Shown here piece by piece: positions 51,163 through 54,556 of a DNA stretch of 64,000 nt. The notes under the pieces were generated by a model. It was not told the origin of the DNA and searched no databases. It was given only the letters and a program-made list of their open reading frames with translations. The position numbers and the translations under genes were made by a program. The first letter of the stretch is position 1, and the number at the start of each line of letters is the position of its first letter. The DNA lies in assembly GCA_002082245.2 (NCBI GenBank), contig NBTC02000002.1, positions 372,001 to 436,000 on the forward strand, written 5' to 3'. The DNA comes from Yersinia enterocolitica (lineage in GTDB: Bacteria > Pseudomonadota > Gammaproteobacteria > Enterobacterales > Enterobacteriaceae).

Positions 51163-51361
51163 GTTTAATATCAATATATTGCTTTCAGTTATCCCAAATC
51201 AATTACTTAGCAAATTCAGCGGACATAGCTCACAAATATGACATTGGCGTGAATTTTGCGCATTGCTTTTCTGTTTCCTAAGGTCTATCACTTAATTGTG
51301 ACTGCACATAAAGTGGTCACTGTTTTCTTTCCACCAGACCGAAAGATGAGGGAAACGAGGC

Positions 51362-51602: not shown

Positions 51603-52043
51603 GTACTTGGTGCCGCAGCGTTGTTGGCTGCATTCGCTCACCCGAATCATTGACTAGTGTCAACTCATCGGGATTCACTCATTTGCCGCCTAGCTGCAAC
51701 ACCAATTACTTTGAGTAATACAGGTGGTACTTGTCGCTGCAGCATTGTTGGCTGCATTCGCTCACCCGAATCATTGACTAGTGTCAACTCATCGGGATTC
51801 ACTCATTTGCCGCCTAGCTGCAACACCAATTACTTTGAGTAATACAGGTGGTACTTGTCGCTGCAGCATTGTTGGCTGCATTCACTCACCCGAATCATTG
51901 ACTAGTGTCCAACTCATCGGGATTCACTCATTTGCCGCCTAGCTGCAACACCAATTACTTTGAGTAATACCGGTGGTACTTGTCGCTGCAGCATTGTTGT
52001 CTGAATTCGCTCACCCGAATCATTGACTGGCGTCAACTCATCG
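51603..52043. repeat. Tandem array of a 124-bp ERIC-derived unit (about 3.6 copies)
   Basis: Units start at 51603, 51727, 51851 and 51976, with lengths 124, 124, 125 and a truncated 68 bp. Each contains ERIC core words (CGCTCACCCGAATCATTGAC, CAACTCATCGGGATTCAC) and the end CAACACCAATTACTTTGAG. The first three are nearly identical; the third has one inserted C and the fourth is degenerate and cut off 13 bp before the KAS II stop codon. It fills most of the 527-bp gap 51530-52056 between rmf and that gene. Confidence 0.95.
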
Positions 52044-52056
52044 AGGTCTGACCAAA

Positions 52057-53331
52057 TTATTCAGCCCAGCGTTTTAGCAAGATACTCGCGTTAACCCCGC
52101 CAAAACCGAAGCCATTTGACAGTGCATAGGTTATCTCATGGGGGAGAGCTTTACCTGCCACAATATTCAACCCCTTGGCCGCGGCATCCAGATTCTCCAA
52201 ATTCAGAGTGGCAGGCACGATTTGATCACGCAGTGCCAGTACCGTGAAGATGGTTTCCAATCCGCCAGCCGCCCCCAGCAAATGCCCGGTGGCTGACTTG
52301 GTTGAGGTAATGGCTAAGGTATTACCTTCACCAAATAAGTGTTTAATCGCATTGATTTCGCCAAGATCCCCCACCGGAGTTGAGGTTGCATGCGCATTAA
52401 GATGCTGAACTTGTTCTGGCTTAATTTTAGCCTGACGCAATGCGATCTTCATTGCGCGATATGCGCCATCACCATCTTCAGCTCCAGAGGTCATATGGTA
52501 GGCATCAGCACTGGTACCGTAGCCGACAATCTCAGCTAACGGTTGTGCGCCACGGGCGAGAGCATGTTCCAATTCTTCAATAATCAGTAAACCGGCACCT
52601 TCCCCCATCACAAAACCATCGCGAGCACTGTCGAAGGGACGGGAGGCTTTCTCAGGTGTGCTATTAAAACCGGTTGATAGAGCACGAGCTGCAGCAAAAC
52701 CAGCCAAACTGACCTTATCAATCGCGGCTTCAGCGCCACCACATAAGGCAACATCCGCTTCATCGTTGCGGATCATCCGCACCGCATCACCAATAGCTTG
52801 CACTCCCGCCGCACAAGCGGTGACGGGCGCGCCAATTGGCCCTTTAAAATGATGTTTAATAGAAACATGACCCGCAGCCAAATTCACCAAAAATGAAGGT
52901 ATTGTGAAAGGGGAGAGGCGTTTTGGCCCGCGAGTGTCGGTGGTGCGTACGGCATGGGCAATTGCAGGGAAACCGCCAATACCAGAACCAATCACGGTAG
53001 CGGTACGTTCCTGTTTTTCTACATCGTCAGCATGCCAGTCGGCTTGGGTAATAGCTTCATCTGCCGCCGCCATCGCAAACGCAATGAAACGATCCATTTT
53101 CTTCTGATCTTTTGGCGCAACAGCTTTATCAGGATCAAAGCCTGCTTCTGAGTCTGCATCAAGTGTAGGCACTTGCCCACCAATCTTAGCTGACAAATCA
53201 CCGACAATCTCATCCGGCAGAATACGGATGCCGGATTGCCCTGCCAGCAAACGTTGCCAAACAGTTTCGCTACCACAGCCTAACGGGGAAACCACACCCA
53301 TACCTGTAATTACTACACGGCGCGTATTCAT
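52057..53331 (-). CDS. Beta-ketoacyl-ACP synthase II paralogue (FabF-like)
   Basis: The 424-residue thiolase-fold enzyme has the full catalytic set of KAS I/II: Cys173 in PVTACAAGVQ, His314 in NAHATSTPVGD, Lys345 and His350 in TSTKSATGHLLGAAGG. FGFGGVNAS near the end is typical of FabF/FabB. The canonical fabF normally sits in the plsX-fabHDG-acpP cluster, which is not in this window, so this is probably an additional copy. It follows the HxlR gene by 35 bp with the same orientation, forming an operon. Its place beside fabA hints at a role in unsaturated or special acyl chains. Confidence 0.9.
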   Translation of the reverse strand: MNTRRVVITGMGVVSPLGCGSETVWQRLLAGQSGIRILPDEIVGDLSAKIGGQVPTLDADSEAGFDPDKAVAPKDQKKMDRFIAFAMAAADEAITQADWHADDVEKQERTATVIGSGIGGFPAIAHAVRTTDTRGPKRLSPFTIPSFLVNLAAGHVSIKHHFKGPIGAPVTACAAGVQAIGDAVRMIRNDEADVALCGGAEAAIDKVSLAGFAAARALSTGFNSTPEKASRPFDSARDGFVMGEGAGLLIIEELEHALARGAQPLAEIVGYGTSADAYHMTSGAEDGDGAYRAMKIALRQAKIKPEQVQHLNAHATSTPVGDLGEINAIKHLFGEGNTLAITSTKSATGHLLGAAGGLETIFTVLALRDQIVPATLNLENLDAAAKGLNIVAGKALPHEITYALSNGFGFGGVNASILLKRWAE

Positions 53332-53366: not shown

Positions 53367-53873
53367 TTACCTGGTATCTATTGACTGTTTGCCATGCATC
53401 AGTGCCAACCGTTTATTAATTATATCGCTCTTGACGGAGCCTGCCGCAAGAGTGACATCTTGTGCACAAATAGGTTGCCCGGTATTTCTGTCCAGTAAGA
53501 TAGTTTCTACCGGATTACCCGTACGGCGATCTGCGAGAACTACCGCAGGACCAAGTGGTGCAAAATGCTGATTACCCCACTGGAATAGTGCCGCCATCAC
53601 TGGGAAAAAATCATTGCCACGCTCAGTCAGTAAATACTCATAGCGGGCAGGACGCGGATTATAGAGCCGCTTTTCAAGGATTCCACTTTCCACCAGATAC
53701 TTTAGGCGGCGGGTGAGGATAGTGGGTGATAGCTGCAAACTTTGCTGAAATTCATCAAACCGCGTTAACCCCTGAAAGGCATCGCGGATGATTAATATGC
53801 TCCACCATTCGCCGACGCGTTCAAGAGAGCGGGCAACCGGGCAAGGCATGTCTTCAAGGCGGGTTCTTTGCAT
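53367..53873 (-). CDS. HxlR-family winged-helix transcriptional regulator
   Basis: The 168-residue protein has the HxlR domain in residues 1-110: DMPCPVARSLERVGEWWSILIIRDAFQGL, shown in part as PCPVARSLERVGEWW, then RFDEFQQ and LSPTILTRRLKYLVESG, then RPARYEYLLTERG. The family's N-terminal Cys (Cys11) is conserved and in relatives senses thiol or quinone stress. A 55-residue C-terminal extension contains one more Cys. Start 53873 has GAGGA five bases upstream; the longer frame to 54023 would run through the fabA terminator. A perfect palindrome lies 64 bp upstream. Confidence 0.9.
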   Translation of the reverse strand: MQRTRLEDMPCPVARSLERVGEWWSILIIRDAFQGLTRFDEFQQSLQLSPTILTRRLKYLVESGILEKRLYNPRPARYEYLLTERGNDFFPVMAALFQWGNQHFAPLGPAVVLADRRTGNPVETILLDRNTGQPICAQDVTLAAGSVKSDIINKRLALMHGKQSIDTR

Positions 53874-53936
53874 TCCATTCCTCACATCATTATTGTGGCT
53901 TTGGCTGAGCGTGGGCTGAAAATTAACATTCAACAG

Positions 53937-53959
53937 GTGACTACATTTATTGTAGTCAC
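53937..53959. promoter_or_regulatory. Perfect 9+9 palindrome, candidate HxlR operator
   Basis: GTGACTACA and TGTAGTCAC are separated by five A/T bases. The site lies between the fabA terminator and the HxlR start, where an autoregulatory operator is expected. Binding by this regulator is inferred from position and symmetry. Confidence 0.6.
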
Positions 53960-53966
53960 TTGGGTT

Positions 53967-53987
53967 AAAAAAAATGCCTCGTGGCAT
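53967..53987 (-). terminator. Intrinsic terminator of fabA
   Basis: On the minus strand ATGCC and GGCAT pair around ACGA and run into eight T residues. A second, stronger stem without T-run (GTGCAGGGG/CCCCTGCAC, 53998-54023) precedes it, 15 bp after the fabA stop. Confidence 0.82.
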
Positions 53988-54037
53988 CATTATTATGGTG
54001 CAGGGGAGTAACTGCCCCTGCACAGGGATAACAGATA

Positions 54038-54556
54038 TTAGAAAGTATTGGTGTCTTTAAACAGACCGACTTTCAAGTCGGTGGCAGTGTAAATCACTTT
54101 GCCATCAACCAAAACTTCACCGTCCGCGACACCCATAATTAATTTACGCATAATAACGCGTTTAAAATTAATACGATATGTTACTTTCTTGGCTTCAGGC
54201 AGTACCTGACCGGTGAATTTAACTTCACCGACACCCAGCGCGCGGCCTTTGCCTTCGCCACCTAGCCAGCCAAGATAGAACCCAACCAATTGCCACATAG
54301 CATCAAGGCCCAAGCAGCCTGGCATTACAGGATCACCGATAAAGTGGCAACCGAAGAACCATAGATCTGGATTGATATCCAGTTCCGCTTCCACATAACC
54401 TTTGCCATAGGTACCGCCGTCTTCTGTCATCTTGACGACACGGTCCATCATTAACATATTGCCTGCTGGCAATGGTGGTCCGCCAGCGCCAAACAGTTCG
54501 CCACGGCCTGATGCTTCAAGGTCTTCTTTTGTATAGGATTCGCGTTTATCTACCAT
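54038..54556 (-). CDS. fabA: 3-hydroxydecanoyl-ACP dehydratase/isomerase
   Basis: The 172-residue hot-dog-fold enzyme has E. coli length. It dehydrates 3-hydroxydecanoyl-ACP and isomerises the trans-2 product to cis-3, starting unsaturated fatty acid synthesis. Catalytic His71 lies in [14 protein letters not shown] and Asp85 in [11 protein letters not shown]. Start 54556 ([17 protein letters not shown]) is conserved; the open frame above it overlaps lonH and is a shadow. FabR- and FadR-type sites lie 39-74 bp upstream. Confidence 0.98.

What the first reader, a model, noticed from the sequence alone, without database searches (positions are those of the whole stretch)
53367..53959. Possible new regulatory unit: HxlR regulator, second KAS II and a perfect operator palindrome beside fabA
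Between fabA and rmf, where E. coli has nothing comparable, lies a two-gene operon (regulator 53873-53367, KAS II 53331-52057, gap 35 bp). A palindrome of two perfect 9-base arms (53937-53959) sits between the fabA terminator and the operon start. The KAS II has an intact catalytic set. The regulator keeps the N-terminal Cys used for redox sensing in some relatives. Together this suggests stress-switched elongation of acyl chains next to the unsaturated-fatty-acid branch enzyme. Linkage and sites are seen; the switch is inference.
Basis: partly seen in the sequence, partly recalled or inferred. Interest (0 to 1): 0.7.

Follow-up and report, generated by a model that had tools for sequence, protein, structure and literature searches.

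The report
Repressor-controlled spare fatty-acid enzyme operon
Beside the gene fabA, this Yersinia genome carries a spare fatty-acid-building enzyme together with the DNA-binding protein that probably keeps it switched off; the DNA switch looks real and conserved, and resembles a chemical-stress back-up kit already half known from Pseudomonas.

Summary
In detail: HxlR regulator (53873-53367), second KAS II (53331-52057), 35-bp gap, perfect 9+5+9 palindrome (53937-53959) after fabA's terminator. A lone 9-base palindrome proves little, but this one is present in 22 of 22 Yersinia loci with the gene pair, and the same spaced half-sites, AGTNACT-N11-AGTNACT, precede 35 of 52 non-Yersinia relatives of the regulator, against 8 of 2600 shuffles. 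It is very probably the regulator's operator; in Yersinia a -10-like TACAAT lies inside it, which fits autorepression.

The KAS belongs to a FabF2 clade. In Pseudomonas putida, FabF2 is a cryptic KAS under its own TetR repressor; derepression replaces FabB (PMC8319022). Of 40 FabF2 loci opened, 32 have an HxlR or TetR gene within 1.4 kb; of 30 canonical fabF loci, none. Relatives of this HxlR also sit beside efflux pumps, and an HxlR-FabF2 cassette occurs on multidrug plasmids.

Best reading: an autorepressed back-up KAS, switched on by an electrophile or KAS inhibitor. The link to fabA is adjacency seen only in Yersinia. The trigger remains inference. New variant of a known kind.

The parts
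53367..53873 (-). HxlR-type regulator, 168 aa, PA1374-like subfamily; Cys11
52057..53331 (-). second KAS II, FabF2 clade, 424 aa; Cys173, His314, His350 intact
53936..53960 (-). predicted operator, 25 bases, AGTNACT-N11-AGTNACT type; perfect 9-base dyad at 53937-53959
53949..53954 (-). -10-like TACAAT inside the operator (no convincing -35 found)
   Evidence: TACAAT 19, TACTAT 2, TATAAT 1 of 22; the promoter scan does not list it
53965..53988 (-). terminator-like stem and T run after fabA
   Evidence: visible in most Yersinia rows
54038..54553 (-). fabA, neighbour; not shown to be part of the unit

Best explanation
An autorepressed back-up KAS operon. The HxlR protein binds the 25-base operator, which in Yersinia overlaps a -10-like box, and silences its own gene and fabF2. 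A chemical signal releases it, and the cell makes FabF2, a long-chain KAS that can stand in for an inhibited FabB or FabF. I think the signal is a thiol-reactive electrophile acting on Cys11, or a KAS-inhibiting xenobiotic. Shown here: the gene pair, a conserved site that goes with this regulator subfamily, FabF2 membership, and the recurring pairing of FabF2 with an HxlR or TetR gene. Shown by others in P. putida with a TetR repressor: autorepression, cryptic fabF2, derepression replacing FabB. Inferred: that this HxlR represses rather than activates, the nature of the signal, and the benefit.
For: Site in 22 of 22 Yersinia pair loci; half-sites in 35 of 52 distinct non-Yersinia upstreams against 8 of 2600 shuffles, 0 of 52 coding and 0 of 52 reversed controls, with the unscored core also conserved; 0 of 22 TetR-gene upstreams at p<=0.01. 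FabF2 rows separate from 4 canonical FabF rows at 100/100. HxlR 16, TetR 16, either 32 of 40 FabF2 loci within 1.4 kb, 0 of 30 canonical. P. putida genetics. Relatives beside HlyD+DHA2 pumps in 8 and MATE pumps in 4 of 30 loci; HxlR-HlyD-DHA2-FabF2 in Pantoea sp. At-9b; cassette near tet(G) and floR on two opened plasmids. PA1374 among 28 genes induced by bromofuranone BF8 in P. aeruginosa persisters. G006 lost regulator and site together while keeping an open KAS gene.
Against: 17 of 52 relatives miss the motif threshold. The motif was chosen after seeing Yersinia and a few relatives. No good -35, so activation is possible. In P. putida, fabF2 deletion changed no fatty acids and raised resistance to three antibiotics, which does not fit a simple protective role. 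fabF2 (PA1373) is not named among the BF8-induced genes in the section read (table not seen). G006 keeps the KAS without regulator, so dedicated repression is dispensable at least there; since regulator and site adjoin, one deletion explains their joint loss. 8 of 40 FabF2 loci show neither HxlR nor TetR within 1.4 kb.
Confidence: 0.6

Rival explanations
1. Fatty-acid homeostasis: the HxlR senses an acyl-thioester or membrane state and tunes FabF2 to adjust unsaturated fatty acids together with fabA.
For: FabF2 of P. putida does the FabB step, and loss of its repressor also raised fabA expression; the pair sits beside fabA in Yersinia; fabF2 of P. aeruginosa rises 23.4-fold on SigX overexpression (PMC3875570, passages).
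Against: fabA adjacency absent from 54 other FabF2 loci; no operator-like site at the fabA promoter (within 3 mismatches the window holds only 53937 and 51298); fabF2 deletion leaves P. putida fatty acids unchanged; pumps as alternative partners of the same regulator.
Confidence: 0.2
2. HxlR acts as an activator, recruiting polymerase to a weak promoter, rather than as a repressor.
For: No convincing -35 upstream of the -10-like box (sequence; one search lists no promoter here); activators exist in the family (PDB names HxlR of 7bze a transcriptional activator).
Against: The site overlaps the -10-like box in 22 of 22, a repressor's place; the analogous P. putida regulator represses.
Confidence: 0.15
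3. The palindrome is an RNA hairpin (attenuator or part of fabA's terminator), not a DNA operator.
For: The stretch folds well as RNA (z -4.4) with the dyad as a 9-bp stem.
Against: Dyad pair 4/22 is complementary in only 10 of 22 Yersinia sites, while the unpaired central positions 11 and 13 are fixed in 22 of 22; the same half-sites with another core precede distant relatives. Neighbouring hairpins share in the fold energy.
Confidence: 0.04

Closest known systems
P. putida F1 Pput_2425 - efflux pump genes - fabF2 (PMC8319022)
   Same: A KAS annotated FabF2 in one operon with its own repressor, which also represses itself; derepression lets FabF2 replace FabB.
   Different: The repressor is given as TetR family and two efflux genes lie between; here an HxlR directly precedes the KAS. 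The authors write that all such clusters carry a TetR regulator. Whether the P. putida protein falls in the clade was not tested: its sequence was not fetched.
PA1374 / PA1373 (fabF2) of Pseudomonas aeruginosa
   Same: PDB chain 4gcv, which I recall as PA1374, is 49.7% identical over residues 1-159; PA1373 is fabF2 (PMC4597187, passages); in four family-f28 genomes a 62-74% relative of 4gcv lies beside FabF2.
   Different: In those four the regulator gene is on the opposite strand to the KAS, not in one operon. Adjacency of PA1374 and PA1373 is taken from the locus numbers. The structure paper is known only as a cited title (not held).
Cys-based HxlR/DUF24 sensors (YodB, HypR/YybR, QsrR)
   Same: Same winged-helix family: 4a5m, 5hs7, 4hqm match by sequence; an N-terminal Cys used for sensing (recalled).
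   Different: They control detoxification genes (recalled), not a KAS; here a C-terminal extension of about 60 aa beyond the HxlR domain and no second conserved Cys.

Membership tests
HxlR family of transcription factors | HxlR winged-helix domain over the curated cut-off | tested here: met
   PF01638 71.5 bits, cut-off 20.8
PA1374-like HxlR subfamily | Full-length match to 4gcv including the C-terminal extension | tested here: met
   Residues 1-165 aligned; 49.7% identity over 1-159
PA1374-like HxlR subfamily | Upstream AGTNACT-N11-AGTNACT site (proposed here) | tested here: met
   11 of 12 positions at 53936-53960; 35 of 52 relatives reach 10
Redox-sensing HxlR (YodB/HypR type) | Conserved N-terminal Cys | tested here: met
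   Cys11 in 73 of 74 distinct relatives; that it senses anything is not shown
Redox-sensing HxlR (YodB/HypR type) | Change of DNA binding on thiol modification | not testable with these tools
   Needs protein; only an indirect hint, PA1374 induced by BF8
FabF2-type KAS | In the FabF2 clade and outside canonical FabF | tested here: met
   Separate at 100/100 in 64 rows, though long branches meet there; NF004970 745 bits against TIGR03150 545
FabF2-type KAS | FabB-like elongation of cis-3-decenoyl-ACP | not testable with these tools
   Shown only for P. putida FabF2
P. putida-type fabF2 operon | TetR repressor as first gene | tested here: not met
   The first gene is HxlR

The most novel reading that the evidence does not exclude
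The pair belongs to an undescribed, widespread target-bypass module: HxlR (or TetR) regulators that answer one class of chemical by releasing a spare KAS, a pump, or both, against natural products or electrophiles that hit the KAS active site. The HxlR branch shares one operator code, AGTNACT-N11-AGTNACT, across Pseudomonadota; the cassette has also moved onto multidrug plasmids; Yersinia kept the enzyme arm alone and fixed it beside fabA.
Probability: 0.35. Interest if true: 0.8.

Novelty: new variant of a known kind. Interest (0 to 1): 0.52.

Why it matters
It turns one palindrome into a testable operator code for a regulator subfamily for which my searches found no target site in print (open-licence papers only). 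It extends the cryptic FabF2 of P. putida to a recurring cassette whose regulator has been exchanged several times. If the trigger is a KAS inhibitor, many bacteria hold a repressed bypass for an enzyme step that is itself an antibacterial target.

Tried and rejected
Second operator in the rmf leader: 51298-51320 resembles the palindrome (3 mismatches) with the same half-site spacing, and its outer five bases stay complementary in 9 of 11 Yersinia rows; but a like dyad stands in E. coli K-12 and in G009, which lacks the pair (alignment), so I take it as a feature of rmf, not of this regulator. An earlier judgement of mine that the dyad was mostly lost was wrong and is mended here. Regulon scan: half-sites alone give 198 places within 2 mismatches, fewer than the reversed control's 623, so they do not work as a scan; with the core, only this site is strong. 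fabA as part of the unit: rejected. RNA hairpin: unlikely. Inhibitor resistance from active-site residues: FabF2-type differences are visible (HGTSTP to HATSTP, STKSMTGH to STKSATGH) but I could not turn them into a test. A P. putida-like gene order: in G338 a TetR gene lies about 3.3 kb from the pump adaptor, so the match is only loose.

Literature searches: HxlR+fabA+Yersinia 0; HxlR+FabF 3, off topic by listing, not opened; PA1373/PA1374 8 papers, of which I searched five for passages and read one section of one; fabF2+P. aeruginosa 15; fabF2+Yersinia 1; thiolactomycin+fabF2 3; HxlR+fatty acid synthesis+operator 0; HxlR+beta-ketoacyl+palindrom 0; HxlR family/electrophile/P. aeruginosa/furanone 17, none on topic by listing; HxlR+inverted repeat+gtaac 0.

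Limits: one search holds near-copies (same strains from two collections); searches do not. In one search, 76 loci were given and 52 distinct upstreams kept; the rest had no such regulator at 90 bits, no start codon in reach or too little upstream DNA. One search gave 40 matches outside the own genome; I fetched 39 and left out G215, whose FabF2 gene has an in-frame TAG, and added G028, making 40. The canonical control covers 30 of 39 genomes (loci cap). Neighbour classes rest on phmmer against a few reference proteins. The TetR labels include four genes 2.3-4.6 kb away.

Full report
What is there. In E. coli K-12 rmf and fabA are 69 bp apart with nothing between. The window lies in an unnamed 5.07-Mb genome; the ten closest named relatives of the regulator are Yersinia species at 82-90% identity.

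Is the palindrome more than chance? Alone, barely: by my arithmetic such 9-base dyads occur about twice per 64 kb, and another perfect one lies about 40 bp away. Conservation decides. In the own genome and 24 same-genus genomes, 22 of 25 have the pair beside fabA. All 22 carry the site: in 19 it ends 42-67 nt before the regulator's start, in three (L048, L054, L055) 202 or 128 nt before it, with extra DNA between. The 25 bases are 0.88 identical on average, the 40 bases on either side 0.52 and 0.30, compared without gaps. Of the other three, G009 and G011 have no FabF2-level match, and G006 keeps an open KAS gene 91% identical, but neither regulator nor site between fabA and KAS (best 8 of 12).

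The site goes with the regulator. The half-sites AGTNACT-N11-AGTNACT reach at least 10 of 12 in 35 of 52 distinct upstream regions of non-Yersinia relatives (40-58% identical for the 30 named), against 0 of 52 coding, 0 of 52 reversed and 8 of 2600 shuffled sequences; unscored core positions are conserved too (TTGCATNATG). 21 of 27 relatives beside FabF2 and 14 of 25 without it pass. Upstreams of TetR genes show none (0 of 22 at p<=0.01; HxlR rows 60 of 85, near-copies included). In Yersinia the core is CTACAATAAATGTAG with small variations; TACAAT (19), TACTAT (2) or TATAAT (1) stands at one place in 22 of 22, a -10-like box inside the operator. I found no convincing -35, and the promoter scan lists none here.

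What the enzyme is. It scores 745 bits to NF004970 and 545 to the FabF model and is 47% identical to the genome's canonical FabF. In a tree of 64 rows FabF2-type enzymes are separate from four canonical FabF rows at 100/100, with a long-branch warning. Cys173, His314 and His350 are intact. Of PMC8319022 I read the abstract, part 1 of 3 of Results, two further Results sections and the Discussion: P. putida FabF2 does the FabB step, is cryptic, and is released when the repressor gene at the head of its operon is lost; that repressor also represses itself. The authors write that all such clusters carry a TetR regulator.

What this adds. Of 398 genomes drawn across the phylum, 40 (own included) have a match at E<=1e-150. 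Of the 40 matches outside the own genome I opened 39 (G215 left out) plus G028. Within 1.4 kb, 16 of 40 have an HxlR gene, 16 a TetR gene, 32 either, 11 a pump gene; of 30 canonical fabF loci from these genomes none has any. On the enzyme tree HxlR and TetR each need 8 changes, of which well-supported branches force 4 and 5; a TetR-linked enzyme (G425) falls among the Yersinia ones. So the enzyme tends to keep a local regulator whose kind is exchangeable.

What it may answer to. Relatives of this HxlR lie next to HlyD+DHA2 pumps in 8 and MATE pumps in 4 of the 30 non-Yersinia loci. In Pantoea sp. At-9b HxlR, HlyD, DHA2 and FabF2 follow one another on one strand. A 2-kb HxlR-FabF2 cassette lies near tet(G) and floR on two opened plasmids; 8 of 59 matching plasmid records hold at least 80% of it, and E. 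coli genomes gave no match in near mode. That EmrAB-type pumps export thiolactomycin, a KAS inhibitor, is recalled; the paper was not held. PA1374, recalled as the 4gcv structure, is 49.7% identical to the window regulator and is among 28 genes induced by bromofuranone BF8 in persister cells (PMC3447867, one section read); PA1373 is fabF2 (PMC4597187, passages). Cys11 is the only Cys conserved among 74 distinct relatives (73 of 74). These favour a chemical trigger over fatty-acid homeostasis; none tests the window's own protein.

Against. In P. putida, fabF2 deletion left fatty acids unchanged and raised resistance to three antibiotics. fabF2 is not named among BF8-induced genes in the section read. 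17 of 52 relatives miss the motif threshold, 8 of 40 FabF2 loci show neither HxlR nor TetR within 1.4 kb, G006 does without the regulator, and activation instead of repression is open.

Verdict. Observation confirmed, interpretation partly supported. It is very probably an autoregulated operon of a kind known in outline from Pseudomonas, with an HxlR in place of the published TetR and an operator code for which I found no report. The fabA neighbourhood looks incidental: 0 of 54 FabF2 loci outside the Yersinia set have fabA beside them.

Noticed in passing
window 51603-52043: Tandem array of a 124-bp unit, 3.5 copies, 95% matching, directly downstream of the KAS gene; not identified.
   Followed up: no
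window 51297-51321: rmf leader holds a dyad with the same half-site spacing as the operator; also in E. coli K-12 and in G009, which lacks the pair. Its role is unknown to me.
   Followed up: partly
L213 (G006) 853-1500: A Yersinia with fabF2 beside fabA but without regulator and operator; 648 bp of other DNA lie between.
   Followed up: partly
L203 4130-4654 (G000:C2): A second HxlR of about 40% identity in the own genome, divergent from an MFS exporter gene.
   Followed up: no
L085 4487-6260; L086 4484-6260: HxlR-FabF2 cassette on multidrug plasmids of Enterobacter hormaechei and Pseudomonas paraeruginosa near tet(G) and floR.
   Followed up: partly
G274:C2:1046713-1047798; G215:C3:181092-182351: FabF2 genes with one in-frame stop each; G274's lies beside RND pump genes.
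   Followed up: no
L048, L054, L055 upstream of the regulator: Extra DNA between operator and regulator start in three Yersinia loci (202 or 128 nt instead of 42-67).
   Followed up: no
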